This document shows, in pieces, positions 7,201-28,534 of a stretch of DNA of 64,000 nt. The notes beneath the pieces were generated by a model that saw only the letters and a program-made list of their open reading frames with translations, had not been told where the DNA came from and searched no databases. The DNA lies in contig JBANAY010000004.1 in assembly GCA_037952775.1 (NCBI GenBank), positions 8,494,001 through 8,558,000 on the forward strand, written 5' to 3'. The stretch's first letter is position 1, and each line of letters begins with the position of its first letter. The position numbers and the translations under genes were made by a program. The DNA is from Clonostachys chloroleuca (lineage: Eukaryota > Ascomycota > Sordariomycetes > Hypocreales > Bionectriaceae).

Positions 7201-7700
7201 TTGCGAGGGTGAATCAGCGTTTTCGAGACATGCTTGAACAGGTCAGGGCGCGAAAGACTGACATTGGGCAAATGCAAGGACGCGCAGACGACACCTACAC
7301 GAGCCTTAGGGTGCTTCTGGAGCTCAAGCAAATGCAGAGCAACGCGCTCGAGGCCAAGTTCGCGCGCCACCAGGCCATCAGCGCGGCGGTGCAAGGACAG
7401 ACGATGCTCGTCTTCACGACTGTGACTGTCTTCTTTTTACCCATCACCTTCATCGCCACCATTTTCACCATCGGTTTTCAGGAGTGGGAAGCGGGGGAGG
7501 GCGGCAGTCTGCTGACGATACCGTTCGTGTTTAAATATGTGTTTGGAGTCGGCTTGGCCGTCTCGATCCCCCTTGTCATGCTTGCGTTTACTGCGGTTAA
7601 TATTGTAGACGCTGCGAAGGCCACTTTGGCGTTCGCAAAGCTCGTTCTCTGTTCACGCCCGAGCCGATGGACACAAGGAACCGAAGGCTCTTCAGTATAA
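4245..7700 (+). CDS. Ankyrin-repeat protein with C-terminal CorA-like domain
   Basis: Exons 4245–5630, 5708–5722, 5827–6093, 6151–6439 and 6502–7700 join in phase to give about 1051 residues. Exon 2 is a 15-nt microexon. Residues about 15–350 are ankyrin repeats (for example TTLHFFAMQG, TALMCATDKS). A low-complexity SDQGA repeat follows, then the linker IKWIHLPANNLAWLQ seen in fungal ankyrin–CorA proteins. The C-terminal region has a helical stalk and two membrane spans, about 954–977 and 990–1015. CorA magnesium channels carry a Gly-Met-Asn signature at the end of the first span; here it reads Thr-Ile-Gly, so ion selectivity is doubtful. A Gln/Tyr/Gly-rich stretch (QQQQPYGYGG) interrupts the stalk. 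A poly-T run lies in intron 2. Role unknown; a membrane sensor or scaffold is an inference. Confidence 0.85.
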
Positions 7701-8897
7701 TACGGCCCATGTGGTTGTAGAGTCGCAAAATGTACGCAACAGCTTTGCTGCACAAAACTAGCCGACAGACTCGACTCAGTACAGGCTAAAATTCAGTTCC
7801 CCATGAAAGTTTTGTTCGATTTCTCAGCTAGGCGTAGAATGACGCAAAGTGCAATGTTCCTTCCATGCACAAAGGCCATCGTGTTAAACAGGGTCTCAGA
7901 CCATCCGACCAGCAAAAGTGGGATGCACATCCGCACCCATATCAGTACTCCACAAGTCATTAAGAAGCACCATATCCGTTCATTCCTGCCCTTCATCTAC
8001 GGAGTAGTCGTCTATTATAAGGACTGCAACATTTTGCCAATTTTCAAATCAGCAATACAGATACTGGACTCTATTGGGATGAAGGAGATGATTATTCCAG
8101 CTGCTCTTTTTATGGGAAGCTCAAAGGCAGAAGGACAAAAGTTTAATGAGGCCATTTCACTACTCACATGGGCTGAAAAACAAATTCAAGGCATCACCTG
8201 TCAAGGTGGACAAATGAATATGCCTCGCCGAATCACCGACCGCATTTGGGAGGTATTCGCAGTTCGCCCAACGGATTGGGGAGCAGGGTGGGAGCATGTT
8301 GCGCCAGTGATGACGTGGTATTCCAGCGTCTACATGTGCCAAGCTCCAGTCCAAGCAGGCACCAGAAATGCGAGAAGAATGAAGTTGTCGGGGGAAGGAG
8401 GATCGCAAATCAAGCCATCGCCTAAGAAACAATGCGCATATGGTCTATCGGAAAGGCGGGGGAGTAGAAGGACATTAATACGGGTTAGCTTTGCATGGCG
8501 CTCCTGTCACACATAGTCACAACCAAGCTGTACTGAAAGTATAAACCACCCATCAAGGTCGAGTTGCCCGAGGCGTACAACGAAGCTGAACCCAGTCCCA
8601 ACCCAGTCCCCCTTTCTATACAGGCAACGCAGTGTCCTGATTGCATCGGCGATGAGTGACTATCTTGCTTCAAAGCAGATTTAATAGAATGTTAATTATC
8701 CGTTTACAGGCAAGTATATCAAACGAGTGCAAGAGGAATCTCCCACGCGAGAACGTGATTATCACAGGCAAGGCACCCTGCAACTTTGAATTGGTAGAAT
8801 TGGATTATTAGCCTAGTAATTAACAGATCACCACCTAGCTAGAAAGAGCCTCGTTAGAAGTCTGGTGTTTCCTAGAACACTGACGGAGCCACCAACA
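7701..8897. other. Interval with one long unrecognised open frame
   Basis: A 237-codon plus-strand frame (7803–8516) is open but has no recognisable family, biased composition or splice structure, and an antisense frame overlaps it. It may be chance. Nothing else was seen. Confidence 0.4.
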
Positions 8898-10118
8898 TCA
8901 TTTTCTTTCTTCTTCCCACTGCCTGTACCACTGCGCCATCTGGTCATCTGCATAATCCCAACTTGCTGGCAGTTCATGGCGGGATGGAAGCGAGCCAAAT
9001 GGGGAGTTAAACGTTGTAGGATTCAATGGGCGTCTCGATGAGGGGATTTTGTATAGCTCAGCAATTGTCCAGCGTTTGAGGCGTTGTTCGGCATATTGAC
9101 GCCAAGCCTCACTGAGCAAACCATGACCAGTGGTATATTGATAGTAGAGAGCTGGCGAAGCTAACTCCTGCACCCGTATTGACAGTTCTTCGCTGAACAA
9201 TTGTAGAGTATTTCTCGATGGAAATTTAGAAGTAGACCGTGGAAGAGGCAGTCTCTGGTCGAATACGTGAAATTCGGCATGTTCTAAAACGTAATCCGGC
9301 GTCTGCCCCGTCCCTTCCAGTACTGGATGAAGTGGCATAGCCAAGGTGTGTCGATCGCCAACTCGTCGTGAGCCTATGTTTTGCACCTTGAGCCGGGCTA
9401 GATCTAGCCATATAATGTCGCGACTAGTCCAACCTTGTTTAGAAAGCTCGGCAAGGTGAGCTCCTAGGTGATCATCTAGCGGACGCAGAGGATAGAGTTT
9501 GTGAGTTACGATTGTTGCAAGAGGGAATATCGAGTAGATCTTATTCCACGACATGAAACTTAAGTCCGCGATCGTGCAGGACGAACGCAGAAGGGCATGG
9601 ATCGGGATTGTGTCTGAAGTCGTGATATGAATCGTTCTATCGGGCGAGGTCGGTCGGTGGAGTACGAGAGTGCTCTGTTCAATAACCTTTTAGTTAGCAA
9701 AGAAGCATCCATTGATCATATCATTCCTCACATCTCCATCGTCAAGTCTGATGTAGTGCTCCTTCAAGCACAAGTAGTCAATAAAATTGGTTGTGCAAGG
9801 ACCGCCTTCCAGCAGGACATCCAGGCGTGGAACGGTGTTATGACGCCGCTCTAAAAATTCGAGAATAGCTCCACCAACAAGGAGACCATTGTAGAAGGCA
9901 AGGTTGTATCGGAATAAAGCACAATCCTTGACAAAGGCCCCTAGAAGATGGTTGGCGTTGAGTCGACTTCGATGCTGAGATTGGACAGCATCGCGAAGTG
10001 CCCGACATACACGATGAAGGATGACAATGTCTGCGAGCGTGAGAAATGATAGAATCACCTCAGCGATTGTAGGAATGCAAAGGAGCCTTGATAGATGAAG
10101 CAAAGCTAAGGAGGACAT
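8898..10118 (-). CDS. F-box protein of a fungal expanded family
   Basis: Exon 1 is 10118–9732 and exon 2 is 9674–8898. The 57-nt intron (9675–9731) has donor GTGAGG, branch GCTAAC and acceptor ACAG, and removes an in-frame TAA. The product is 387 residues. The N-terminus has an F-box-like helix set (LLCIPTIAEVILSFLTLADI, then CRALRDAV). A middle block (GGAILEFLERR, then LDVLLEGG) and a later block (MSWNKIYSIFPLATIV) resemble the FALQFFER and YDKAYSLYPYATF blocks of a widespread fungal F-box/hypothetical family. Expected role: substrate adaptor of an SCF ubiquitin ligase. It appears intact. Substrate unknown. Confidence 0.75.
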
Positions 10119-11862
10119 AGCTTTTACTATGGGGACTCAGATGTACAGTAATCAGCAGTTCTTCGAGGTTGTTGCTCCGAGCAACTTCGTTGGTGGGGCC
10201 AAGTGCGGGGTAACGCCAACATCAGTGGTCACATGAGTGGATGTATGTTTGCCAGGGCACAACTACATGGAGCAAAGATTATGCGACTAAAGTCTTCCAA
10301 AGCGCCTTCCTGACCCTGCGTATGGTCGAAACTCCATGCAGGTAGCTCTGAACCCATTCGACTTCTTCAAGCTTTGATATCAAGTTCGAGAGTAGCCCCG
10401 GATCGGCATTGAGTTGCTCTTGGCTGGCCAGTTTGGCGGGAGCGGTCTTGCCGGCCATGGCCGCGCAGGTTGAAGGTCACTCGAAAAGGCAGCACGATGC
10501 AGATAACTTCAGTCCAAAGAGTCTTATTTTGATCGCGTCTCAAATGAGGTACGTGCGCGGAATTTATTGCAATAGGTTATCAGCCCGTGTGTACCCCTCA
10601 GTGACCCAGTTGCCCTCACGTGATCATCCCAATTTGTCTCTAGACTCGAAATGATCAAGTACCTGCTGAATTCAACGAATCTTGGAATGAAAGGATTGCT
10701 AATTGTGGGAAAGTTGGCACCAGTGGCACCAGTGAAGGGATTGGCCTCATTATGGCTCTTCGGTGCGCCGGGCGCTTCAAAGTGCTTGTGCTGTTTAGTT
10801 GTAGTTCAAATATGACGAATTGACTACCATTCTCTTCCCCAATGATGGTTGACGCGCCTCTGTTCCGAAATAATCCCGAGACCTGGCTGGGAGGCTGGTT
10901 AACCGTGCTACATACGCGACAGGGTGCTATGGTTTTCCAAGGTTAGTCCAAAGTGACTGAGGACAACCCCATAGGAAATGCTACTGATGCCTTCTGTACC
11001 CACAAAGCGTTGAAGTCCTGTCATCGGGAGTAGTGAAATATATCTATAGCTATGAAGCGTAATCCAAAGAACTAGGACCAAAGGCATCGAGCCGCAAGCC
11101 GGGACCGTGGTCGGTGTTGGATGACGCCACGCATCCCAGGTTGGGATCCCGCTGAGTCTCTTACAGCTTAGCGGCTGCTTGCCTGGAACTAAAGCACGAA
11201 ACGGCCTGAGCAGCAAGCTATCGCGCCTGCGCAGTGCCAAGCCGCTCAATGGCTGAACAAAAAATAAAATAAAATAAAAATAAAGGAGACCCGCAGATGC
11301 CACCTGCCTTCAACCAGGCGCCTGGAGGGTTAGCGCCTCATTCCGAATGGCATTGGCTGACCCAGAATCAGGCTCCTGGCTCGGCCTCAAGGCCCAAACT
11401 CTGGGCCAGCTTATCTTAGATACTGGGACCAAGTAATAATCGTTCGTAAACTACCAGTCCCCTAGATTTCCCTTTGCTTAGATACTGGTACCATATTATT
11501 TTAGTTTATCTAGTACTAGTATCAAAATACTGTAGTTTTTTCGGTCCTAGTATCCAGACACTGCAATTTAACTTGAACCAGTATTCAAGCGCTATAAATT
11601 GCCTGGCGCTGGTATTATCCGATACTGGTATTGGAAAACCTACGTAGGGCGTGGGCATCTTCAAGGAGATAGACAAGATTACAACGTCTTCCCATAGTCC
11701 TGCGACAGGAGACCGGTCCCCCTTTAGGGACCGCGAACGCCTTTTCGGAACGAGTTAAGAGCGTAGGAACAAGACGCTTGCCTCGTGAAAGAGTGAGCCT
11801 GATACAAGTACGTATATTATGAAGCCCTTTCTCAAGGCATATCCATTTCCCAGCAATATTCG
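10119..11862. other. Interval with dispersed repeat copies
   Basis: No supported gene. About 10785–10925 shares the CCGAAATAATCCCGA…GTGCTACATA stretch found upstream of the FunK1 gene at 28.9 kb. About 11400–11640 repeats GATACTGG/CTAGTATC-like words. About 11695–11765 (ACAGGAGACCGGTCCCC … CCTTTTCGGAACGAGTT) matches 13909–13965 in the left endosulfine repeat. Confidence 0.5.
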
Positions 11863-12686
11863 CTATTTGAAAGTATCTCTGCAACGGACCATTTGCTGTA
11901 TTTGCAAAATGCCTGCCTTGATGGCATCAATGACATACAGAGCCTCGCCCATGCGCTTCCCTAAGAACTTGGTTGCGGTAGAGCGGACGATGTCCTCTAA
12001 TTCGGCCGTTACTATGCAACCTATAACCACGCATCGAGCCAAACCTGACTGAAGTAATTGCCCTGTTGCTTCTCTTATACCATTTTTCATATCCTCTTGA
12101 GAAATGGCATTTGGATCGGGGCTGTAAAATTTCGCTGAGAAGACACCGGCGAACCTGTCATTACTACTATTCTCATCCTGACCCAGAAATGACTTGACTT
12201 CAACCATGAGATAGCTCTCCCAGAAGTGGTCCAGTGTGACAATTCCCCATTTGTCGCTACTATTAGGGCGCAGTAGTGTCTGGGCCGTTAGAATGCTCGC
12301 TTCAAAGACCCCCATGATACATTCAGGGCCAAGATTGGACAATTTTGAAATTAGAGATTTGGTACCAAAGCCAGCGATGAGGACGGCATCGTAGTGATCT
12401 AATGTAGGGCCATCGTTTGATAGTCTCGAGTAGACAGTTTCTTCGCTTGTCTTGATGTCGCTGTAACTAGTTATGCTTGACGGAGATGGCTGTGGAGTTG
12501 TATAGGCACTGAGCTCCATGGACTATAGTTGTGGTCAGCTTGTCAGTCCCTTTGATATGTTAGTTCCAAGCGTCTCCGTACATCGCCCAACTGCATTCTG
12601 TCTATTCTAGCTACTATCGCCGCAGTTATTGCCTCTGAGGAGTTGGGGTTGATGATGAGGATACGAAAAGTCTGGCGTGGATTCAT
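11863..12686 (-). CDS. Dcg1-like Asp/Glu/hydantoin racemase-family protein
   Basis: Exon 1 is 12686–12582 and exon 2 is 12522–11863. The intron (12523–12581, 59 nt) has donor GTACGG, branch GCTGAC and acceptor ATAG. The product is 254 residues, close to the usual length of Dcg1/hydantoin racemase proteins. The N-terminus reads FRILIINPNSSEAITAAI, the family signature; a TTPQPSPSSI block and a C-terminal EALYVIDAIKAG block also match. Members use two cysteines as acid/base pair. The second is present (VVIGC, residue about 204), but the first position reads IAGFG, with Gly86 where family members have Cys (ACFS-like). Racemase activity is therefore doubtful, although the rest of the fold looks intact. 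I start at the Met just before the family N-terminus; an upstream Met at 12848 is possible. Confidence 0.8.
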
Positions 12687-13004
12687 GTTGCCGAGATGGT
12701 GTCCTCTTGACCGCTTGAAAAGATATTGATAGACTTGTTGGATTGTAGTACTGTCAAAACTTATCACCTGGTCCAGTTGCTCCTGGTTTATAATTTCCTT
12801 CTCACAATCTGTGTGGTTGACATGCGGATGACGTGAGGCAAACGTCAAGTTGTTTTGCTAATCAACGCCAACTCCACCCTCTCGCCCTAGTCATTGTACT
12901 CTAACCATGCCCGTTTTCCGCGGCTAGTAATAGTGGAATCCAACCATCAGCAGTCATACATTGGATATCAGCACTTATAGCGGATTATAACATCAGTTTC
13001 ACAT

Positions 13005-14152
13005 GTCAGCAAGCTTAGATGAATTATGACGTGAGTTGAATGGCCGCTCCACGATCGATAAGCGCTTACCGAGGATGTGGGGGGAAGGGGGGTGGCAATG
13101 TATTCGTGACCGTTTTAGATAAGCATTATACTTTATTCTCCCCAAGGGAAACTACATATATTTGCTTTTGTATATATTAAACCAGTGGCGTTTACCAGCC
13201 CCGCCTCAGTACAACACCATATATCCTGCAATGGAATCCCAGACAAAAGGACATTGTGAGGCAAGTAAGTATATATCCTTATTCTCCAATAAAGCGCTAA
13301 ATACCTAACGCTCCCCGAGGCCAGAAGCCTAATAAAAGAGCAGAGCGCCTCCAAGAAATCTATGGGACACCACATCGAGATCTCCTTAACCACCAGTTGG
13401 ATGTACGTATATATGTGCTTCACCCTAAGCACCCTCCTAATCATCTCTTGGTCTCATTCTGGTATAGTATTAACTGTATATAGGAAAGAAGGTATTTCGA
13501 TTCTGGTGACTTTGCCCTTTCGCAAGCCCAGAGGGGTTCCGATATTGGAAAAATCAAAACCGGAACCCAACACCCACGCCGGGAGAGTATATCTCATCCA
13601 AGAGCTCCTATGCCAGGCTCTGATAATGCTGATGAGAGCGCAAACAAGGGTCTGCAAGACCAGGAGAAAAGTAGCGAGCCACAGAATCAGAGCCACCTCC
13701 ACGAAATGGCGCGCTCGGAGAATGGGAAGCCGTTAGCGTTGGATGTGTGATATCAGTAAATCTATTTTAGCAGATAATCAAGATCTACAGAGGCGCCGGG
13801 TGGCCCTCCAAGGGATAGGACGAAGCGGCTGGCATGGCGCAAACCATGGCGCAAACCGTGGCGCACGGGTTGTGGCGCAGACGATTGAACGAAGGAGGGC
13901 GCGGAAGACAGGAGACCGGTCCCCTACGGGTCCGCCAATGCCTTTTCGGAACGAGTTGAGAGCAGAGCGTGGAATATCACGTGACACGAACTGTTTTTCC
14001 TGGTAACGTAATGGCACCCTTTACTCAGGCCTAAATGACCTCAGCCACTCCACTTCCAAAAGTCCAAACTAGACACAAGACATATTACTAGCGGATATCA
14101 GCCGACTGAAGCTCGAACGTGACGAGTTATACGCTCTTCTATTGAAACAGGT
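13005..14152 (+). repeat. Left arm of a large direct repeat containing an endosulfine gene
   Basis: This stretch is repeated in the same orientation at 19537–21018. The two share the whole endosulfine gene with no difference I could find between its start codon and the C-terminal coding end. They also share the 5' flank from ACATGT(C/T)AGCAAGCTTAGATG and the 3' flank through a GTGGCGCA-rich segment to TCTTCTATTGAAACA. The left arm lacks several hundred bases present in the right arm and carries an ACCGGTCCCC segment instead. Differences in the 5' flank are mainly C/T and G/A changes. The arms bracket the 14-3-3 and Reg1-like genes. Confidence 0.85.
13231..13750 (+). CDS. Alpha-endosulfine/Igo-family PP2A inhibitor, copy 1
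   Basis: Exons 13231–13264, 13320–13402 and 13484–13750 give 127 residues. Introns start GTAAGT and GTACGT and end GAG and TATAG; the second falls just before the ERRYFDSGDF block. Endosulfines (ENSA/ARPP19, yeast Igo1/2) share an LYG…L..KL(K/Q) helix followed by ERKYFDSGDY. Here RLQEIYGTPHRDLLNHQLD precedes YFDSGDFALSQAQ, then a TGTQHPRRESISHP tail typical of filamentous fungi. In the family, the Ser of FDSGD is phosphorylated by Greatwall/Rim15 and turns the protein into a PP2A-B55 inhibitor; that Ser is present, and the following Tyr is Phe. The gene looks intact. It is paired with a second copy 6.5 kb downstream. Confidence 0.88.
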
Positions 14153-14450
14153 AGGCGCGGAGGCCAATCTTGCCGGTGCACATCTAGGTGATGACAGAGC
14201 TGATGGCCCGATGCATCCCTCTATTAGTATAACGCAAAGTGACTAGTCCTAGTGTCAACCTCAATATAGACTCCCTATACCGTCGCCATACTGTGTACTT
14301 GCACTGATGATCTAAACCATAACAACTCCACGCAGGAACGCCAGGAAATTATCAGAGCTTGAAGGGAAATCTCCGAAGTCTGAGGCCAGTTTCACATAAT
14401 TATACACGAGCCTCACTAAGTAGGTAGTTGATACCTATTTTTCATTCATT

Positions 14451-15401
14451 TTAACATGTTACAGAAAGCTTCTCCATTAATGTCGCTTGGGTTGAGGCTC
14501 CCCGCTGACCACTGTCAGTAGACGTCCAAAGGCACAGGTTGTCACGGAGCATGCGTATGATAGTAATGCTCTCGTCATCAGGCTCCTTGGCAACCCCCGA
14601 GAGTTCAGCAATGGCGTCATCAAAAGTACGCTTTGCAAGATGTCGGGCATGATTATGTAAGTTCAGAATTTCGTAGTAGAAGACCGAGACGTTCAGAGCC
14701 AAACCTAGCCGCAACCGATGAGTGGCCGCAAACTCGGTCTGCACAAAATCGGTGGCAATCTTAGAAGTACCCTTTCAATCAATACTCTTGGATAATTCAA
14801 AGCTGAAGCAACAGACTTGGAACCCACCTTGTAGGCCATGTAGGCAGAACTAACTGCAGCTGTGTACTTCTCACCCAACGTGAACTCGGCTAAGTAACGG
14901 TTATAGTCGCCCTTCCTAAAAACAGAGCGAGTCAGCCCATGCGCTTTCAAGAAGTGAAGACCAGTAGAGTAGGCATACATCTTGTAATAGAAGACCTTTG
15001 ACTCGACAGTGCCGGCATAGGGAATCAGGCTCCCGTCTAGCAGATCCAAGACATCGCTACAGACTATCTCGAGCTCATTCTCAATCTTCTTGCGGTATCC
15101 ACGGGTAGTGGCAATATGCTCCTCGTTAACCCTTGGCTGTTTCTTTTGTTCGATTGATAAGATGGTGCGCAAGCTGGAACGGCGGGTGCAGACCATACTC
15201 GAATAAGCAGTGGCAAGAAGGCTCCGCTCATTGACACTGAGCTCACCACCCGCGCCGATGACTTCCTTCAGGTGGGGGACCATATCGTCGTAACGCCCAG
15301 CCTTCTCACAGAGGTGAGCGAGAAAAGAATGGCTACCGCTATGAAGTTAGTGCTATTGTCCCGATGAGGGTGATCGAGTGGCCAAACTTGTCGCGCTGCA
15401 T
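14451..15401 (-). CDS. Divergent 14-3-3 protein
   Basis: Exons 15401–15388 (14 nt), 15338–14979, 14915–14828 and 14759–14451 join in phase to 256 residues, normal for 14-3-3. Family blocks in order: GRYDDMVPHLKEV, GAGGELSVNERSLL, RRSS…SIEQK, LDGSLIPYAG…SKVFYYKMKGDYNRYLAEF, RLRLGLALNVSVFYYEILN, FDDAIAEL, and LRDNLCLWTS near the end. 14-3-3 dimers bind phosphoserine/threonine peptides through Lys49, Arg56, Arg127 and Tyr128 (human zeta numbering). Arg56, Arg127 and Tyr128 equivalents are present, but Lys49 is Ser (residue about 51, AYSSMV) and Trp59 is Leu. The 14-nt first exon and its GTTTGG donor are the least certain part. Lies between two endosulfine genes, next to a Reg1-like gene on the same strand. 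Confidence 0.87.
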
Positions 15402-16816
15402 GATTCCTTAGGCTAAGTTGGCAAAAGATGGCTGCGAATTTGCGTGATAATCGCCAGATGTGCTAGTAAAGTGGAATGAAAGCATCTAAGGAGAGAGATG
15501 TACTTTAATCCTAAGACCACTGGGATAGATAAACTGTGTAATTTGAATTGGAATAATCTTAGGACTATGCGCGGAGCACCGAGGGACGGAAAACGGAAGG
15601 TGGTTTTATTATCCGTCAACTCTCAGGTGTGGTAGATCAGTCTCGAGTTTGTTGGGCGGAAAGTAAGTAAACAGTCCAGCTTAAAGAGCGCAGTCACTAG
15701 GCCTAGGTGATAATGACCTTGAAACTCAACCGCTGCGTCTAGCACACGCAGGTTTGGCGGCGAGGAATGTGTTGAACCGGTGAGGAATGTAGTGGATGTG
15801 GTCTCTTTATTAAGGTCGTGTATGGGGAATGGCTATAACTAGTTAGGTCCGGCGAACAGCCGAAGCTCCGTAGATAAGCCGCTGCGTCTACGAACGTGAC
15901 AGTGGTGCCCGAACTCGCTTTTTCCTGTTCAACCTCTATCTACATCCGCCTACCAGCTTCTGTGGGTAATTCTATGACTAAGTGTGTGGAATATTTTCCC
16001 ACTGGGCCGTCGAGGCAGCTAGGGATTTTAACGACACTCTACTCCGAAGCAATCCCGAAACGTGGCTAACTAGCTCGTTGAGGCGTTGCTGTACACATCA
16101 CACCTGCGCCAATGCGCACCGACTTCTCATGCTACACACGCGCTACTTGTCATGGCGCACCAATTCCAATCAAATACATATATGCAATACGATGGATACT
16201 CGATCGGTCAAGCAAACTCGCCAACGATGGAACCACCAAGCATGATATCCCGCCAAATAACGCATAATTGGGGGTTGGCATTCCAGGACACGCGACAGAT
16301 GAGACTATATATAAGGATAACACACTCACTCTTAGCAGGATACCGCCGTTTAAGTTAAATGAATGCTAGAACTGTTATATTCTTACATTCCTATCAGGGA
16401 GATACCGGTTATCTACACAGTTCCTATCCGCTTCTTAATACTTTCAGTGGATGGACTGAGAATATTAGCCTCGTACGTGACCCTACCGGTGCTCGAATTC
16501 TTAATTTAAAACTTCGTGTTAGTACGTCCATAGGGTAGCCTCGACGGAACGGACCTACAATGACGTTGAGGCTTTGGCCATTGCGTGTGACGTCTCGATG
16601 GGCGATGGAGCATGCCTATCAAGTAGCAGCAGGCTACTAAGATCGCCTTCACAAAACAGTCTTACCATCATTGGAACAAGTGCTTGCGGGATCCGTTCTT
16701 GTGTCAAATACTAGGTAACACTGCGAAAAGCATCGAGTAGTCGTCTCCCTCCATAACTCCAGACCAGGCTGCACGTGACCGGTATCTTAACGATTACTGC
16801 GACAATAAGAGCTCTC
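15402..16816. other. Intergenic interval inside the cassette
   Basis: Holds the presumed 14-3-3 promoter. About 15915–15965 (CAACCTCTATCTACATCCGC…CCAGCTTCTGTGG) recurs near 32360–32410. About 16040–16165 resembles the 5' flank of the FunK1 gene at 28.93–29.04 kb, including the start context GTCATGGCGCACCAA; a short frame from 16152 could be a captured first exon. No supported gene. Confidence 0.45.
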
Positions 16817-17572
16817 TTAGTAATCCACTAATTCGTCATCAAATGGGGTCTCTTGACAATCACCAGAACAAGTGCTTGCCGGCAAGATGTGACTGCATCT
16901 GTCTCCCTTAACTTGGATTACGATGAAATGGTCAACCTGCTCGTTGAAATGAACGCACTTTCGCTTCCAGCTTGGATATGATACATCGTGGGTCGTAGAT
17001 GAAGTGGCGCCACTGTTGCCTCGGCTCACTAAGCACCCTGAAGCAGGCCTGGTTATCCTGCTTCGTCCATCCTTGCCCTGGTATGGGGTCGCAGCCCCCA
17101 CATATGACCCTTCGAGTATTCTCTCGGATATGCTTCGTTTCTTTAGGATTGGTTTCTTGTCGATAGAGGACGACACGTGAACGTGCTGGCCTGTCCTTAC
17201 AGTAGCGTTGGTACTATCGTCTGCCTGTAGAGGTCCATAGAGCCAAGTTACGTCACTATCCTTCAGCCTAATAGAGCGGGGTTAGCGCAGAACGATAATG
17301 CCAACAAATATAACCACAAACTCCACATACCAATAGAGCGTCTCTGGGCGCACCGTCTTCAGCTTATTCTTCGCTTTCGTCCACGCTCTCCAAATAGCAT
17401 TTTCCAATCGCCTACTGTTACGGTATTCCAATTGCTGGGATACAACGTATTTCCGCGATGACCATATATCCTCCTCTTTCCAGTTGTATGATAAATAGTC
17501 GACGTGTCTAGTCGGCTGTGGCTTGATCGCGGTATCATCGTCTGCACGATGCATGCGGAGAAAGGCATCCAT
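16817..17572 (-). CDS. Short Hex2/Reg1-type protein phosphatase 1 regulatory subunit (DUF1752)
   Basis: Exons 17572–17331 and 17267–16817, with a GTATGT…GCTAAC…TTAG intron (17268–17330), give 230 residues. The N-terminal part has the DUF1752 core: RHVDYLSYNWKEEDIWSS, then LENAIWRAW, KLKTVRPETL and, across the splice, WLKDSDVTWLYGPLQ. Next come DKKPILKKRSISE and KCVHFNEQV (about residues 184–192), the equivalents of the Reg1 PILK and IHFN blocks. In Reg1 the latter is the RVxF-type PP1 (Glc7) docking site; K-C-V-H-F fits that pattern. Reg1 proteins are usually several hundred residues longer, so this is a minimal paralogue: an upstream frame is open to about 17690 but then stops, and the long C-terminus is absent. 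Predicted role: target PP1, as in glucose repression. Confidence 0.82.
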
Positions 17573-19536
17573 TCCGGGCCGCGAGGCTTTCCCTACTGCA
17601 CTGGAATTAGCCCGGGAAGCAGAGCACGAATCGCCTGGCTTCGAATACGCTGGGAGCTCCGGGTCTCGGGCTCAATCGCCTCTGGACGCCCCCTCGTTGA
17701 TCCAATTACTACCCCAAGAGTAAGTAAGGTATTAAGGTATCATATGAGACATCCGTAGCTAAAATTGATGATGCGGTAAATGAGATCAGAATCTGATACG
17801 GGAGCATTGACTTGGACAGTCGGCTAGATTCTAGAATATATGGGGATACGGTTCTTGTGCGATGAGCCACTCCATAACTATCAAGCAAAGGTGGAGGCAT
17901 TGGAAGAGAGCAAGGAAAGTAGCTACAATATCTTACCAGCCACCCCGTTTATAAGTAAACACCTGCATCTAGCAAAACCTGATCAGAGTTTTTCTGGAGA
18001 ACCGCCGAGGGTTCATTTCTCACTTACAAGCCACCATTCCAATTGGCAACTCTGCCTGCTTAGTTCATTTGCTTAGGATTCTAATAGCAGCCATAATCCT
18101 GAGGCACCGGTTCCACTTCGAATCACAATATATTTAATAATTCTTGAGGGTGTTTCTGTGACTGTTGATACTGGCTGTTTACTAACAAAGCTTGTATCTT
18201 GATCTGCCCTTCCAACGTAATCTATAAGAGCAAGTTGTCCTAGCCTTCACCGCAGAGGGCGATGAGCTGCAACAGGTCTCATATGCAGCTCGGAGGGCGG
18301 AGATGCTTACTGCTACATACTGGCGCTAGTGCCGTCCTTATTGACACTTTGGGACGACTTTGTTTCAGGGGGCGCGCTAAAAAATGCAGAACGGGCTTTA
18401 TTTCTGGGCCCCCGTCACGTATGTTATTGGCGCATACTTCGCTTATCACCAGTATTCCCTAAAATAATACTAATGAAAGCGCAATGACCCAACTTATACT
18501 GCATTATTAGACCCTGATGCTCGTCTCAGTCTGGCCTGTTTGTTTGTTTTCCCCTCTTTCTCGGGGTATAGGCAAGGATAGTACGGATAGTACACTCTGT
18601 TTATCACTCCGTCTATTCCTTTATATTAACATCTGCCCTTTTTATCGACTCAAAACTATTCTTACTAGTATTATATTTCATCAAGATGGAACAACCTTCT
18701 GATAGGCTGGTAAGCCTTGTCCATGTGTTAAATACTACCCTATTTTAAACTACTCCTACCCTCGATATGTGATATTCTCTCATGGCGGGATAAGAAGTTC
18801 TATCAACGAGTCCTTCTTTGGACCTAAAAGACTGATTATCGATCTTATGGAGGACAATAGGTCGGAATTGGAGCTATGGGACACTTGTTGGAAACCAGAG
18901 GTTGGCGCGAGCGCCAAAAAAAGTTACTCTACCTTAGTCCATACGCAAGGACGCATGGGACGCTCTTTGCATAGAGACTGTGGCAAACTGAATGCTGGAT
19001 GGCCAGAAGCCCCAAAAAGCAAACGCAGACGACTCAGAGCCGTCAATCTTCCTTTCACACAAGCTCTGGACACGATCCACGAATAACAACCGGCTTCTCT
19101 CAGCGCGATATCTCATCTATGCCACTCTGCATCTACAAATTTCTCGTACTACCGCGTAATACCGTTATGTACATCTCCACACAGCCTCAGCTCAACAAGA
19201 TATCTTCAAACAGCAATGGCCATATATGGAGATGTTGGAGAATTTCAAAAAGGCCAACGCCATAAAGTCGGGAGGTATAGAGAGATTTAGAAGAGAGATC
19301 TTCGGAGAGAATCAGCTCTGGATGATGCTGGCAATTTGGCGAGGGATATCCATGGCCAGGTCTGCCTAATGTACCCTGCGGAGATATCTTATAAGTTGTT
19401 ACTTGAGGAGGATGGGGTGGCTGCTTATTTGGACGTTTGAAAATCATTCGTTCACCTATTATAGTCATTTCATTAATCTTCCTTAATTACTGACTTATTT
19501 CCCACTTAACGCTATATGAATTGCAATATTAATCAC
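17573..19536. other. Interval without a supported gene
   Basis: Upstream of the Reg1-like gene, frames toward its possible lost N-terminus are broken near 17690. Around 18769–19470 are short open frames on both strands (for example 18769–19086 plus) with no recognised family; they could be an old degraded gene. 18560–18600 carries a GGATAGTAC duplication. Confidence 0.4.
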
Positions 19537-21018
19537 ATGTTAGCAAGCTTAGATGAATTATGACGTAAGTTTAATGACCCCTCCACGATCGATAAGCGCT
19601 TACCGAGGATGTGGGGGGAAGGGTGGGTGGCAATGTATCGTGACCGTTTTAGATAAGCATTATACTTTATTCTCCCCAAGGGAAACTACATATATTTGCT
19701 TTTGTATATATTAAACCAGTGGCGTTTACCAGCCCCGCCTCAGTACAACACCATATATCCTGCAATGGAATCCCAGACAAAAGGACATTGTGAGGCAAGT
19801 AAGTATATATCCTTATTCTCCAATAAAGCGCTAAATACCTAACGCTCCCCGAGGCCAGAAGCCTAATAAAAGAGCAGAGCGCCTCCAAGAAATCTATGGG
19901 ACACCACATCGAGATCTCCTTAACCACCAGTTGGATGTACGTATATATGTGCTTCACCCTAAGCACCCTCCTAATCATCTCTTGGTCTCATTCTGGTATA
20001 GTATTAACTGTATATAGGAAAGAAGGTATTTCGATTCTGGTGACTTTGCCCTTTCGCAAGCCCAGAGGGGTTCCGATATTGGAAAAATCAAAACCGGAAC
20101 CCAACACCCACGCCGGGAGAGTATATCTCATCCAAGAGCTCCTATGCCAGGCTCTGATAATGCTGATGAGAGCGCAAACAAGGGTCTGCAAGACCAGGAG
20201 AAAAGTAGCGAGCCACAGAATCAGAGCCACCTCCACGAAATGGCGCGCTCGGAGAATGGGAAGCCGTAGCGTTGGATATATGATATCAGTAAATCTATTT
20301 TAGCAGATAATCAAGATCTACAGAGGCGCCGGGTGGCCGTCCAAGGGAATAGGACGAAGCGGCTGGCATGGCGCAAACCATGGCGCAAACCGTGGCGCAC
20401 GGGTTGTGGCGCAGACGATTGAACGAAGGAGGGCGCGGAAGAAAGAACCTTTTCGTTCCTCAAAGGCATTGGTCTGCCAATTTGAGGCTGTTTGATGTGT
20501 AGTATCGCCAGGTTTGGCCGCTAAATAAAATATGCCCAGCGCCGAATCAATCGTGGTAAATGAGGAGGCGCAGGCGTCTGTGGTGCAGCTGTTGAGCACG
20601 GATCGCCTAGTGGTTCGAGCCTGGGAAAGCAGGGTGCGGAAGAAAGAACCTTTCGTTCCTCAAAGCACTGCCAGTCGTAATTTGATTTGTGCAACTCGGT
20701 TGATGCCATGAATCACCATAGATCAACAAATACTACGTCACAAATAGCACAACAGAACGTCATTCAGTGAACAGCATTAAAAGGCGCTCATCCTTTAACT
20801 TAACTATTAACTCGAAAGATATTTCTCCATCCATTTTTCTTTTTCTTTTCGTGAACTTGTCAGTAAAACAATGGCACCCTTTACTCAGGCATCTGACGGC
20901 TTAAATGACCCTAGCCACTCCACTCCCAAAAGTCCAAACCAGACACAAGACAAATTACTAGCGGACATCAGCCGACTGAAACTCGAACGTGACGAGCTAT
21001 ACGCTCTTCTATTGAAAC
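19537..21018 (+). repeat. Right arm of the large direct repeat
   Basis: Direct counterpart of 13005–14152, offset 6534 bases over the endosulfine gene. It is longer than the left arm because of material between about 20440 and 20870. That material holds two copies of a GCGGAAGAAAGAACCTTT(T)CGTTCCTC word (about 20438 and 20634), also found at about 22275 next to another GTGGCGCAGACGATTGAA stretch. Similarity to the left arm ends near 21018 (ATTGAAACA), where a minus-strand coding relic begins. Confidence 0.85.
19765..20269 (+). CDS. Alpha-endosulfine/Igo-family PP2A inhibitor, copy 2
   Basis: Exons 19765–19798, 19854–19936 and 20018–20269 give 122 residues. It is identical to copy 1 through the YFDSGDF phosphosite, the TGTQHPRRESISHP tail and up to NGKP. 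One T is then missing (CCGTTAG in copy 1, CCGTAG here), making a stop five residues earlier. The known functional core of the family is unaffected, so both copies may be active. The near-identity including introns points to recent duplication or gene conversion. Confidence 0.87.
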
Positions 21019-21086
21019 ATCAATCAGCTTGCCAACGCTGTGCACGACCTTCTCGATGTAGTTGCGGTCCCTCCAAAGCTCATTGA
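20871..21086 (+). CDS. Small charged ORF at the end of the repeat arm
   Basis: The frame starts MAPFTQASDGLND and continues with a heptad-like helix (LLADISRLKLERDELYALLL). The same sequence exists in the left arm near 14009, but there it is broken by a TAA after MAPFTQA. The last about 20 residues (Cys-rich) lie beyond the repeat boundary and are read antisense to another relic, so the natural C-terminus is probably lost. No family recognised. Confidence 0.3.
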   Translation: MAPFTQASDGLNDPSHSTPKSPNQTQDKLLADISRLKLERDELYALLLKHQSACQRCARPSRCSCGPSKAH

Positions 21087-21502: not shown

Positions 21503-22927
21503 TTAGTAGTACATTGACCAACATAATTGTTAATTGTCCACTAGGCCTGAGCACCCTCTGAAAGTAAAGCAATCCCTATACTAATACTCGCTTGGTATAT
21601 TAGTAGAACCTTGGTTTGCCAATAAGTTTTCCGATAGGGATAAGTTGCTGTCCCAACCCTATATATGTTGAGGCATCCTCGGTTGCGTAGAGATGTCGGT
21701 TTTGCCTAGATGCTTTATATCTTATTAGAATATCAAGCAGTGGATGATGCGAGGGTTTACAGCGTTCCTGGTGTGTGCTCTGCCTAAAAATTGGCATAGC
21801 CTCTGCCGTCTATTATACATAGGAGGGATGTTGGTTGCCGCGGAAATTCCTGATTCATACGTAAACATTTAGTTGATTGCTAGTCTGACGTGTCTGACAT
21901 AGTAGATCCATGCACTATGACGAGCGAATGACTGCTGTGAATAAAGTCAAACGCCTCCATTGGCGACCTTGGTATGCGATCAGCTCTGAATAAGGCTGAT
22001 GCGCGGGATGTTGTGTATTCTTGTGATGTAATATTGCAGTAAGTCGGAGCTGCTCCAGAAGTAAGTTCATTTGATCTGCTCCTTGAGGCGGCAACGATGA
22101 CGATCCTGATGACAACTTTTGTCCTCTGCAAGCTTAGTCAAGCTGTGGCGAGTCTTAACTACATATAATAAGAAAAATATGGTGCAAAAAAAACTATGAC
22201 GCACGAGTTGTGGCGTTATCCCTTAAGGGCTCATATGTGGCGCAAACTGTGGCGCAGACGATTGAAGGAAGGAGGGGCGGAAGAAAGAGCCTTTCGTTCC
22301 TCAAGGCATTCTTACAATTGGTTGCTGTGCTGAAGCGCGTACGATTTGCCAAGCGTTTACGCGAGCTTGCAGTATGGCCGCCCTTTTCCCCCATCATCAT
22401 AGCAGGATCAGAGCAACCGTTCAATGTGAGGTGTGTCGCGAGCGGATGTAAGGCGGAAATTAGAGAAGCGGCATTTGGATGACGTAAGTACATAGTGGAA
22501 TGTACTCTGTACCCGCTGCTATGCCCCAACATTTAGTCGCATTTCGTTGCCCTTAGTCGCAGCGGGTCGCATTTAACGTATTTGATTGTATTTAATTGCA
22601 TATAGCTGCATTTAATCGCATTTGATCGCCGGTGCTTATTGCACAGGTTAGAGGTGCTGGTGTGATGGTTGATTACTTCCTAAAACTGGGCTCGGCGGGG
22701 GTGAAATGAGTCCCAATTCTTGGTAAAGCGGCCAAACCGTGGGTCAAGGTGCCAAGATTTTAAAACGAAGCCAAGTCTTAGGTACATCGGACACAGCACA
22801 CTTTAATCAAGGCCTGATTGTACATATGTACTTATGGACTAAGCCATTGTCCGGGCTACAGGTCAACAAATTAGAGACTGACCCTATCGGTGCCACAAGT
22901 AAGCTAGAAGCCTCATAGGTACGTATG
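21503..22927. other. Interval with repeat fragments
   Basis: About 22205–22310 is a fragment of the GTGGCGCA…GACGATTGAA…GAAAGA(G/A)CCTTTCGTTCCTC repeat seen in the endosulfine arms. About 22537–22635 is a degenerate short tandem repeat (CATTTAATCGCATTT-like). No supported gene. Confidence 0.45.
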
Positions 22928-24164: not shown

Positions 24165-24850
24165 AAATTGCTAGCAACTTTTAGCGCTGTGCAAAACTGT
24201 TTTCTGTGAATGGAGCATGTTGCTAGCAACCTACACGCTCTAGAGCAACCTCAGCTTTCCTGTGCCCCGTAGGTTGCTGGCAATCTGAGCTTCCCTGATT
24301 GCTGCTTTCTGTAGGTTGCTAGCAACCTCAGCTCCCCTGATTGCTGATTGCTGATTTCTGTAGGTTGCTGGCAACCATTTGTTTTCCTGGTCTCTGCTTT
24401 CTGTAGGTTGCTAGCAACCTCAGCTTCCCTGATTGCTGCTTTCTGTAGGTTGCTGGCAACCATGTGTTTTCCTGGTCTCTGCTTTCTAGAGGGTCGCTGG
24501 CGACCATGAGTTTTCCTGATCTCTGCTTTCCGGGGGGTCGCTGGCGACCATGAGCTTCCCTGATTGCTGATTTCCGGAGGGTCGCTGGCGACCATGAGTT
24601 TTCCTGGTCTCTGGTCTCTGGAGGGTCGCTGGCGACCATGAGTTTTCCTGGGTCTCTGGTTTCTAGAGGGTCGTTGGCGACCATGAGCTTCCCTGATTGC
24701 TGATTTTCGGAGGGTCGCTGGCGACCATGAGTTTTCCTGGTCTCTGCTTTCTAGAGGGTCGCTGGCGACCATGAGTTTTCCTGATCTCTGATCTCCGGAG
24801 GGTCGCTGGCGACCATGAGCTTCCCTGATTGCTGTAGGTTGCCAGCAACC
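24165..24850. repeat. Palindrome-based minisatellite
   Basis: About 14–16 units spaced roughly 43–48 bp apart, each centred on a 14-bp palindrome. Outer units read GGTTGCTAGCAACC or GGTTGCTGGCAACC (for example about 24313, 24361, 24406, 24447, 24836). Inner units read GGTCGCTGGCGACC (about 24492 to 24801). Spacers alternate CATGAG(T/C)TTTCCTG(G/A)TCTCTG and CATGAGCTTCCCTGATTGCTG types. Minus-strand frames stay open through much of it because of the repeat, which is not evidence for a gene. Confidence 0.9.
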
Positions 24851-25129
24851 TCTGGCTTTCGCTTGCCGCGCACCGTCCTGGCCATCCCGCACCCATGTAA
24901 ATTGTGGAGGCAGTGAAGAAATACGAACTTAAGGGAGGAGTTAGTACAAGTTTCATTGTCACAATAGAAGCAAAAATAGCTGTGTAGGTACAGGTATGTA
25001 CATGTACCTACAGTACATACGTATGTAAACACGGTATGTGATTGCAAAGCTCTATGTACACACAATAATGACCTAGAAGGTTCTGTGGGGCCTACCTGAA
25101 TCCGCCTTCAGCGCCTCCTAGCATGCCCA

Positions 25130-27127: not shown

Positions 27128-27775
27128 CGGCCGTCCTTGGGCACTGAATGTCTCCGGTACTTCAATGATTGTTGAAAGAACTGAATCGTCGGCTTCCGTG
27201 CTTATCTCTGCGATGGCGACAAGGCTAGTGACAGCTGGCAAGGTGTGTAACACATTCCGCTTGAATGCAGGAACTGGGCGGATGAATGAATAAATTTAGT
27301 GGAAACTGATCGTGCGGGTTGTGGGTGAAAAGATCGTTAGGTTGCCCATAAAAATCTAAGGAAAAGAAAGCAAGAACTGAAGTGTTTGTCGTTGCTTCTT
27401 TGTGGCTGAGGTGGTTTTAACTAGCAAATATGGTGTGAGCATTAGTAATACGAACTTCAGAGTCCAGGAAATGGTACCATCCATGTTCTTGGAGCCCAAC
27501 CAACAAACTCAACAAGTCCAATTAACTGTGAGTCTCAAAGCTGACTGGATCAGTTTGCAAATGCATAGGTCCTCCAACTGAATGTAAATTACCTGCTTCC
27601 CTTTCATCTACGCAATCTCCATATTCAACCTTCCACTTGTACCGGTGACAACGCTTCTCTGCTCCCGGTGCAACCCATACAAGCATTCCTCGGAATTGGG
27701 AGGGTTGGTCGAGCACCACATTTCTCTAGCACTATAGTTCGTGACACTCCATAGCGCTACATCCTTCGAGCACTA

Positions 27776-28160
27776 CCCCCCCCCCCCCCCCCCTACTGCT
27801 ACACCTCTTAGTACTATTTATAACCTATATGTAGCACACGCGTCTGGAGCACTAGGTACACCTCCCGAGCACTACACCTCCCGAGCACTACACCTCCCGA
27901 CTGCTACACCTCCCGACTACTACATCTCCCGAGCGCTACACCTCCCGAGTGGCACACCCCTCGAGCACTACACCTCCCGAGCACTACACCTCCCGACTGC
28001 TACACCTCCCGACTGCTACACCCCCCGACTGCAACTCCCCCCGAGCGCTACACCTCCCGAGTGGCACACCCCTCGAGCACTACACCTCCCGAGCACTACA
28101 CCTCCCGACTGCTACACCTCTCGAGTGCTACACCTCCCAAGCACTACGCGCCCCCTGTAC
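27776..28160. repeat. Poly-C run and 17-bp CTACACCTCCCGAGCA minisatellite
   Basis: A run of about 16 C (27778–27793) precedes some 17 units of CTACACCTCCCGA(C/G)(T/C)G(C/G)-type sequence. A higher-order block (GAGCGCTACACCTCCCGAGT then GGCACACCCCTCGAGC) occurs twice. The same CTAC words recur more loosely to about 28460. Confidence 0.9.
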
Positions 28161-28534
28161 TATCAATAGCTCCCATGGAGTGCTACGCCAACTGCATTGG
28201 TAGTACTATCTGTAGCATCTATGGAGTACTACTACGCCTACTGCCTTGGTAGTACTATCTATAGCATCTGTTTAACTAGCCGCCATGTCTAGCCCACCAA
28301 TGCAAGGTTTGCCAGAATCACACTCGTCAGATCTGAGCCGAGGACTCATCTAGATATCCCCCTAGCACTACGCCTCTTACCTCTCCAATGCTACATCTCT
28401 CACCTTTCTAGCACTATCTATAGCCTTCTTTAAGTACTATATGTACCTCAATGCCCTATAATGAAGCATACAATATGTGCCTAAAATATAGGTTGAAAAT
28501 AGCTCTTAATTAATGAATGATGGATTACCTGGGC

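What the first reader, a model, noticed from the sequence alone, without database searches (positions are those of the whole stretch)
13005..21018. Direct-repeat-bracketed cassette of nutrient-signalling paralogues: endosulfine, 14-3-3, Reg1-like, endosulfine
Seen: two same-orientation repeats, each with a complete endosulfine gene, flank a 14-3-3 gene and a Hex2/Reg1-type PP1 regulator on the opposite strand. Known: in yeast, Rim15-phosphorylated Igo endosulfines inhibit PP2A, 14-3-3 proteins hold phosphorylated Rim15 in the cytoplasm and bind Reg1, and Reg1 targets PP1 in glucose repression. Inference: an accessory-region module that re-tunes PP1/PP2A output, perhaps as a dominant interferer with the core pathway. 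I know of no described cluster of these families.
Basis: partly seen in the sequence, partly recalled or inferred. Interest (0 to 1): 0.92.

Follow-up and report, generated by a model that had tools for sequence, protein, structure and literature searches.

The report
Helitron carrying three signalling gene copies
In the biocontrol fungus Clonostachys chloroleuca, extra copies of three cell-signalling genes (a 14-3-3, a Reg1-like phosphatase partner and an endosulfine) lie between the two ends of a Helitron jumping element that sits at two or more places in the genome; the element likely copied them there by rolling-circle transposition, and their products are predicted, not shown, to alter the fungus's nutrient signalling.

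Summary
In detail: two same-strand repeats (98.6% over 915 bp), each with an open endosulfine gene, flank a 14-3-3 and a Reg1-like gene. All are extra copies in this 59.4-Mb genome, whose contig sizes match Clonostachys chloroleuca Cc878. The cassette is a transposon unit, not a conserved cluster. Window 13909-20467 runs between the two ends of a Helitron2-type element (5' TGCCT, 3' CTCCTGT, asymmetric inverted repeat), like FoHeli3-5 of Fusarium oxysporum. A second copy on contig C3 ends at the same two bases with unrelated DNA outside, and its empty target site survives 97% identical in this window. The direct repeats are two such units head to tail. Eleven of 12 endosulfine copies checked sit beside these termini; other 14-3-3 and Reg1-like copies mostly do not and spread by another or older route. 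Synonymous changes exceed replacements in all three families. The accessory 14-3-3 genes form one clade with Ilyonectria, Dactylonectria and Fusarium falciforme proteins, and 12 of 14 listed lost the phosphate-gripping lysine (K49) that 106 of 106 others listed keep, while dimer residues stay. Whether the products interfere with PP1, PP2A or 14-3-3 signalling is untested.

The parts
11705..11765 (-). Helitron 3' terminus of unit U1 (reads ...CTCCTGT on the - strand; ACAGGAGACCGGTCCCC on +)
   Evidence: Exact motif match; profile 68.9 bits (profile built from these loci); 36 genome places with at most 1 mismatch against 0 for the reversed control
11706..13907 (-). Unit U1: non-autonomous Helitron2 with a racemase-like gene and endosulfine 1; its 5' end is cut off inside the terminus
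   Evidence: 3' terminus and partial 5' terminus; matches the units at C4:3.84 Mb and C3:27.55 Mb, which are complete at 2.23 kb
11866..12522 (-). Asp/Glu/hydantoin racemase-like frame, cargo of U1
   Evidence: PF01177, 46.3 bits
13231..13750 (+). Endosulfine 1 (exons 13231-13264, 13320-13402, 13484-13750)
   Evidence: Gene model; PF04667, 47.8 bits
13908..13965 (-). Helitron 3' terminus of unit U2
   Evidence: Exact motif match; profile 63.1 bits; inverted repeat 13 of 15 at 31 nt from the end
13909..20467 (-). Unit U2: composite non-autonomous Helitron2 carrying 14-3-3, Reg1-like and endosulfine 2
   Evidence: Homology to C3:27048458-27035609 stops at both termini (40-bp identities: outside 0.25 and 0.28, inside 1.00 and 0.97); empty site of the C3 copy
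14451..15401 (-). Accessory 14-3-3 gene (exons 15401-15388, 15338-14979, 14915-14828, 14759-14451)
   Evidence: Gene model; PF00244, 252 bits; S at the K49 position
16817..17572 (-). Reg1-like gene (exons 17572-17331, 17267-16817) with a PP1-docking-like KRKCVHF stretch (motif recalled)
   Evidence: Gene model; PF08550, 25.1 bits; homologs include one named 'related to negative regulator of glucose-repressible genes'
19765..20269 (+). Endosulfine 2 (exons 19765-19798, 19854-19936, 20018-20269)
   Evidence: Gene model
20407..20467 (-). Helitron 5' terminus of unit U2 (TGCCTTTGAGGAACGA... on the - strand)
   Evidence: Exact core match; profile 67.9 bits; an A follows it on the + strand in all 14 instances listed
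11553..11707 (+). Sequence that equals the empty target site of the C3 copy of U2
   Evidence: 97.4% over 156 bp across the joined C3 flanks, about 45 nt of it left of the junction

Best explanation
The block at 13909-20467 lies between the two ends of a Helitron2 element and occurs as one unit at two or more genome places with different neighbours; it likely spread by rolling-circle copying, and its 14-3-3, Reg1-like and endosulfine genes are predicted, not shown, to act on PP1, PP2A and 14-3-3 signalling. Shown: both termini, an edge at the same base at both ends in both copies found, the empty target of the C3 copy, and a second unit (11706-13907) lying head to tail, which produces the direct repeats. 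Inferred: the composite arose by end-bypass. Copying started at the 5' end of an endosulfine unit (20467) whose own 3' end is missing (truncated at 19533), ran through the neighbouring Reg1-like and 14-3-3 genes, and stopped at the next 3' terminus (13908). Inferred: the cargo is kept partly because it works, since replacement changes are rarer than synonymous ones in all three families. Predicted: the 14-3-3, which lost K49 but kept the residues of the dimer interface, would pair with core 14-3-3 and bind clients poorly or differently; the endosulfine keeps the Rim15/Greatwall-type FDSGD site; the Reg1-like protein keeps a PP1-docking-like stretch (functional roles of these sites recalled).
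For: Termini found from edges, mapped, 36 genome places against 0 in the control. Their letters match the published FoHeli3-5 ends TGCCT and CTCCTGT with a 13-16 bp asymmetric inverted repeat (PMC5148889, passages); here 13 of 15 at 31-33 nt from the end. Edges: U2 against the C3 copy 0.25 outside-left, 1.00, 0.97, 0.28 outside-right, 40-bp ungapped. Empty sites: C3 composite against window 11553-11707 and L040, and the C4:3.84 unit against L059; in the two alignments printed, the filled site has one extra A. 11 of 12 endosulfine loci have a terminus within 2.3 kb, 0 of 7 core loci. At C4:6.40 Mb a frame with a PIF1 domain, next to one with Helitron_like_N, stays open to within 5 bases of the edge of a divergent 3' terminus. 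Selection: pooled pN/pS 0.46, 0.36, 0.42; six pair tests p 0.0044 to 3.1e-07. 14-3-3 clade support 100/100.
Against: Only 2 of 7 14-3-3 and 1 of 8 Reg1-like loci have termini within 2.3 kb, and both 14-3-3 cases are the composite, so most copies of these two families spread by another or older route. For the window copy itself the insertion is not clean: U1's 5' end is cut at 13907, the missing 26 nt do not follow 20467, and the joined flanks of U2 match U2's own right end (window 20143-20767, 95%), which recombination between the two endosulfine repeats could also give. The C3 copy carries a frameshifted 14-3-3 and about 6.1 kb of extra DNA with a NACHT-ankyrin gene. The flanks of the C4:3.84 unit are a local tandem repeat that also matches itself weakly across the junction. 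The profiles were built from loci they then scored. The partner element rests on one locus whose terminus scores only 18.5 bits. Introns do not diverge more than codon positions 1 and 2 in Reg1-like and in some 14-3-3 pairs, so the selection signal rests on synonymous against replacement changes. No expression or interaction data were available.
Confidence: 0.83

Rival explanations
1. A co-selected regulatory cassette: endosulfine, 14-3-3 and Reg1-like genes are kept together because their products act together on PP1/PP2A output; the transposon ends are incidental.
For: All three families show fewer replacement than synonymous changes; 14-3-3 and Reg1-like lie within 10 kb at 3 of 7 places, more than shuffled labels give (P 0.016, not corrected for 18 pair tests); all three families belong to nutrient signalling (recalled).
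Against: Two of those three places are the same unit. At 100 kb and 300 kb no pair of families exceeds the shuffle. Most endosulfine copies travel without the other two. The C3 copy has a frameshifted 14-3-3. The same islands hold FunK1 kinases, so they are not specific to this pathway.
Confidence: 0.12
2. Plain segmental plus tandem duplication by unequal crossing-over, with no transposition.
For: The islands hold segmental copies, e.g. window 3800-9839 at 99% in C4:1967920-1973951 and L050/L048 with the same left flank. Removing U2 from the window leaves an endosulfine unit next to the same right flank, as crossing-over between the two repeats would.
Against: Homology between the two composite copies stops exactly at both termini, and joined flanks of the C3 copy match uninterrupted DNA but for one A.
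Confidence: 0.06
3. Functionless hitch-hikers: the genes are transposon cargo decaying at near-neutral rates.
For: Broken copies exist: 2 of 7 14-3-3 and 2 of 8 Reg1-like read as frameshifted, truncated or stopped, 1 of 11 endosulfine with a stop. The closest 14-3-3 pair has dN/dS 0.74. Introns of Reg1-like genes diverge no more than codon positions 1 and 2.
Against: Pooled pN/pS 0.36-0.46 and pair tests p 0.0044 to 3.1e-07. Codon positions 1 and 2 diverge less than position 3 in most pairs, and for endosulfine less than most flanks. One 14-3-3 copy groups with a Bionectria ochroleuca protein (C. rosea; synonym recalled), not with its own paralogues, so lineages outlive a species split.
Confidence: 0.2

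Closest known systems
FoHeli3-FoHeli5, non-canonical Helitron2 elements of Fusarium oxysporum (PMC5148889; abstract, one section and passages read)
   Same: 5' TGCCT, 3' CTCCTGT, asymmetric inverted repeat of 13-16 bp with the 3' copy about 20-40 bp from the end, sharp borders, insertion right next to another copy.
   Different: No Rep/Hel domain found in the unit; 2.0-2.2 kb or 6.6 kb (12.9 kb at C3) instead of 9-11 kb; a hairpin at the 3' end, which the paper says this group lacks; carries open spliced signalling genes, whereas that paper lists 27 putative capture events, mostly hypothetical proteins, and found no evidence that capture plays an important role.
Gene-carrying Helitrons of Pleurotus ostreatus, HELPO1 (PMC4289320; passages read)
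   Same: Fungal Helitrons carrying expressed captured genes.
   Different: Those genes are of unknown origin and function and lie downstream of a RepHel helicase in the elements described; here the cargo derives from known core regulators and sits in non-autonomous units.
Accessory-chromosome TOR, CDC2, BCK1 and FunK1 paralogues of Fusarium oxysporum (PMC6001611; passages read)
   Same: Extra copies of nutrient and cell-cycle regulators in accessory DNA, some with altered key residues (a shared TOR change in the catalytic loop).
   Different: Kinases on accessory chromosomes; the word 14-3-3 occurs 0 times in its main text, and the passages seen name no transposon as vehicle of the copies.
Dominant-negative 14-3-3zeta K49E/K49N (PMC3868614; passages read)
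   Same: Same residue changed; N is the natural residue in the Ilyonectria and Dactylonectria proteins.
   Different: Laboratory mutants in mammalian cells; in the fungi S, A or N occurs naturally and the effect is untested.

Membership tests
Helitron2 (FoHeli3-5-like) | 5' end TGCCT | tested here: met
   T|GCCTTTGAGGAACGA on the - strand from 20467; published ends
Helitron2 (FoHeli3-5-like) | 3' end CTCCTGT | tested here: met
   Both window termini end CTCCTGT
Helitron2 (FoHeli3-5-like) | Asymmetric inverted repeat of 13-16 bp, 3' copy about 20-40 bp from the end | tested here: met
   13 of 15 identical, offset 31 (U2) and 33 (U1)
Helitron2 (FoHeli3-5-like) | No hairpin at the 3' end (FoHeli3-5); hairpins at both ends (Helitron2 at large) | tested here: not met
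   The 3' terminus folds a hairpin (RNA parameters, no shuffle control), as Helitron2 at large but unlike FoHeli3-5; so 'FoHeli3-5-like', not filed as one of them
Helitron2 (FoHeli3-5-like) | Precise insertion without a longer target duplication, sharp borders | tested here: met
   Edge identities; two empty sites printed, one extra A each, at AA on the + strand, i.e. T|T
Helitron2 (FoHeli3-5-like) | Encodes Rep/Hel protein | tested here: not met
   PF14214 finds no place inside the unit, so non-autonomous; candidate partner with PF14214 and PIF1 at C4:6.40 Mb
14-3-3 proteins | Full PF00244 domain | tested here: met
   252 bits, profile positions 1-223 of 223
14-3-3 proteins | Phosphopeptide pocket K49, R56, R127, Y128, N173 | tested here: not met
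   In the window copy R56, R127, Y128, N173 kept, K49 is S (residue numbering recalled, the K position seen against 14-3-3 epsilon)
Endosulfine/Igo | PF04667 with the FDSGDY site | tested here: inconclusive
   47.8 bits; site reads FDSGDF in all 11 genome copies read, FDSGDY in the core gene; effect of F unknown
Reg1/Hex2 PP1 regulators | AreA/Reg1-type domain and an RVxF-type PP1-docking motif | tested here: inconclusive
   PF08550 above cut-off; KRKCVHF present (motif recalled, binding untested)
Starship giant transposons | Captain tyrosine recombinase (DUF3435) at the element end | not tested
   No search was made for it

The most novel reading that the evidence does not exclude
A transposon family has armed itself, or its host lineage, with a kit of natural signalling modulators: K49-less 14-3-3 proteins that act as dominant-negative partners of the core 14-3-3, an extra PP2A inhibitor and an extra PP1 adaptor, spread by Helitron copying, the 14-3-3 belonging to an old accessory lineage shared across Bionectriaceae and Nectriaceae.
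Probability: 0.15. Interest if true: 0.92.

Novelty: new variant of a known kind. Interest (0 to 1): 0.76.

Why it matters
Helitrons are known to pick up genes, often only pieces (recalled). Here a fungal Helitron2 carries several whole, spliced genes descended from core nutrient regulators; those gene families still show fewer replacement than synonymous changes, and the element left empty sites that prove the unit. It gives a concrete vehicle for part of the pile-up of signalling paralogues in accessory-type fungal DNA. The natural loss of K49 in most of an accessory 14-3-3 clade turns 'do these copies interfere with the core pathway?' into a direct test.

Tried and rejected
Considered and dropped. 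LTR-type explanation of the direct repeats: the repeats contain genes and the edges are Helitron ends. Retrocopies: the accessory 14-3-3 has introns at the three positions seen in the core gene. Conserved operon-like cluster: label shuffles show no excess pairing beyond 14-3-3 with Reg1-like at 10 kb. Wider pile-up of phosphatase regulators: STPPase_N 2 places, TIP41 1, PTPA 2, none within 300 kb of an accessory copy (counts are lower bounds), so the expansion is of particular families. My first 14-3-3 model (260 aa) used a third acceptor that most other copies lack and was replaced by 256 aa; searches used the older model. A Starship origin was not tested. A look for FDSGDY mutants in one paper found nothing. 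Structure prediction and fold searches were not used. I did not find an empty site for the window copy of U2. Long-branch attraction in the 14-3-3 tree was not excluded.
Full report
Where it is. The window is G000:C4:8494001-8558000 of a 59,374,895-base assembly in 4 contigs. Contigs C3 and C4 measure 37,472,460 and 15,319,885 bases, the lengths attached to Clonostachys chloroleuca V2G26 proteins. The Cc878 genome paper gives four contigs, 59.38 Mb and N50 37.47 Mb (PMC11256822, whole text). That paper calls it a biocontrol fungus.

The observation. Repeats 12999-13911 and 19533-20445 are 98.6% identical over 915 bp. Each holds an open endosulfine gene; between them lie a 14-3-3 and a Reg1-like gene on the - strand (Pfam). 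Core copies lie elsewhere: 14-3-3 at C1:2.12 and C3:32.63 Mb, endosulfine at C3:3.04 Mb, the likely core Reg1 at C1:2.17 Mb (a second Reg1-type gene is at C4:2.14 Mb).

Families in islands. I took 7 accessory 14-3-3, 13 endosulfine, 10 Reg1-like and 20 FunK1 places (the last chosen from 42 rows by leaving out extra exons and weak rows). Within 100 kb of another of these families lie 6 of 7, 10 of 13, 9 of 10 and 15 of 20, against 0.5 to 1.0 expected at random; 0 of 12 core or control genes lie within 300 kb (places). Counts in those searches are lower bounds. 'Accessory' is inferred from this clustering; other strains were not compared. Shuffling family labels among the places shows no preferred pair except 14-3-3 with Reg1-like within 10 kb (3 of 7, P 0.016, uncorrected for the 18 pair tests made), of which two are the same unit.

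The transposon. A 58-bp motif sits at a sharp edge: the 12 instances printed have about nine different upstream sequences (three share one flank, and in two the end of another unit precedes). Its first 17 bases occur at 36 places with at most one mismatch, against none for the reversed control. A second motif ends the units on the other side and is followed by A in all 14 instances. Read on the - strand the units begin TGCCT and end CTCCTGT and carry an asymmetric inverted repeat, 13 of 15 identical, whose 3' copy lies 31-33 nt from the end. These are the ends published for FoHeli3-5, Helitron2-type elements (PMC5148889). I found the ends before reading that paper, so the match is an independent check. 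One feature differs: a hairpin at the 3' end.

The units. Four complete single units measure 2,022 to 2,233 bp, each with an endosulfine gene. In the window, U1 (11706-13907) holds a racemase-like frame and endosulfine 1 and is cut inside its 5' end. U2 (13909-20467, 6,559 bp) runs from the 3' terminus at 13908 to the 5' terminus at 20467 and holds 14-3-3, Reg1-like and endosulfine 2. U2 has a second copy at C3:27048458-27035609. Over 40 bp, identity outside the two ends is 0.25 and 0.28; just inside it is 1.00 and 0.97. Joined C3 flanks match window 11553-11707 at 97.4% over 156 bp and L040 at 95.7% over 255 bp, about 45 nt of each lying left of the junction; the unit at C4:3.84 Mb likewise matches an empty site in L059, 87.9% over 423 bp, although its flank is itself a local tandem repeat. 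In both printed alignments the filled site has one extra A. So the C3 block is a discrete inserted unit. It also holds about 6.1 kb of extra DNA with a NACHT-ankyrin gene and its 14-3-3 is frameshifted. For the window copy no empty site was found; its joined flanks resemble U2's own right end, so recombination between the endosulfine repeats may have shaped this locus after or instead of a separate insertion.

How the composite arose (inference). In U2 the endosulfine unit lacks its racemase side and its own 3' terminus (homology starts at 19533). Copying from its 5' end past the missing stop, through the Reg1-like and 14-3-3 neighbours to the next 3' terminus, is the end-bypass model described in PMC5148889 (passage). 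The gene order and polarity fit.

What the transposon does not explain. Termini lie within 2.3 kb of 11 of 12 endosulfine loci, 2 of 7 14-3-3 loci, 1 of 8 Reg1-like loci and 0 of 7 core loci (one further endosulfine fragment and two Reg1-like places were not examined, and flanks held were mostly about 1.5 kb, less for parts of two core loci). Both 14-3-3 cases are the composite. The wider spread of 14-3-3 and Reg1-like genes is by another or an older route.

Autonomous partner. Helitron_like_N matches 14 places. At C4:6.40 Mb the frame with PIF1, beside the frame with Helitron_like_N, runs through a divergent 3' terminus and stays open 4 bases past it; the terminus abuts another unit's 5' end. 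It scores 18.5 bits (E 3.3e-05 in a small search), so this is suggestive only.

Selection. Nei-Gojobori pooled pN/pS is 0.46 for 14-3-3 (5 of 7 copies), 0.36 for endosulfine (10 of 13) and 0.42 for Reg1-like (6 of 10); dropped copies were broken, fragments or not read. Six chosen pairs give p 0.0044 to 3.1e-07. Pairs are not independent and transition bias is ignored. Codon position 3 diverges more than positions 1 and 2 in most comparisons; flanks of endosulfine mostly do too, but introns of Reg1-like and of some 14-3-3 pairs do not. The nearest 14-3-3 pair has dN/dS 0.74.

The 14-3-3 clade. In a 34-row tree all 16 accessory rows (Clonostachys, Ilyonectria, Dactylonectria, F. falciforme) form one clade, 100/100, apart from the 18 other rows. 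These rows were picked because they resembled the query. Introns match the core gene, so these are DNA-level copies. At the K49 position the 14 accessory rows among 120 listed hits (of 7,986) read S 5, A 2, N 5, K 2; the other 106 all read K. R56, R127 and Y128 are kept in 14 of 14 and N173 in 12; of the dimer-interface residues tested (roles recalled), Y82, K85 and E89 are kept in 14 of 14, R18 in the 12 rows that cover it. K49N and K49E 14-3-3 are called dominant negative in a mammalian study (PMC3868614, passages). Interference in the fungus is therefore predicted, not shown.

Other cargo. All 11 genome endosulfine copies read carry FDSGDF where the core has FDSGDY; one copy has a stop just before it. 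The Reg1-like protein keeps the AreA/Reg1 domain and KRKCVHF, which fits a PP1-docking motif (recalled).

Literature. Accessory copies of TOR and other kinases are described in F. oxysporum (PMC6001611, passages). Among the papers listed (20 of 56; 8 of 43) none is on accessory 14-3-3 or endosulfine clusters by title and abstract start; two searches found no paper. Only open-licence papers are covered.

Noticed in passing
window 29709-31439: FunK1-type fungal kinase (PF17667, 470 bits), one of many copies concentrated in the same islands.
   Followed up: partly
window 3800-9839: About 6 kb (ankyrin and weak CorA-like frames) is 99% identical to C4:1967920-1973951: a recent segmental copy 6.5 Mb away.
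   Followed up: no
L059 1706-1858; window 20870-21019 and 14028-14149: A small reading frame (MAPFTQ...LLLKH, about 50 aa) sits near a Helitron 3' terminus at several loci; in U2 it has an early stop.
   Followed up: partly
L063 851-3300 and L034 1-305: A NACHT gene with a 99-bp tandem repeat that looks ankyrin-coding lies inside the C3 copy of the unit, at a point that is uninterrupted in the window.
   Followed up: partly
L074 627-972: A stretch of about 345 bp bounded by a 3' and a 5' terminus: possibly a minimal non-autonomous unit of the same family.
   Followed up: no
window 20610-20666 and 22250-22306: Two more Helitron 5' termini just right of U2, so the window probably holds remnants of at least four units.
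   Followed up: no
window 34172-35089: PD-(D/E)XK nuclease-superfamily gene (PF20516, 156 bits) beside the FunK1 kinase.
   Followed up: no
P0146, P0151: Relatives of the Reg1-like protein occur in F. oxysporum f. sp. cubense and F. poae (FPOA_12689); whether these lie on accessory chromosomes was not checked.
   Followed up: no
window 24251-24892 and 27741-28169: Tandem repeats of 44 and 16 bp run through these otherwise unassigned open frames.
   Followed up: no
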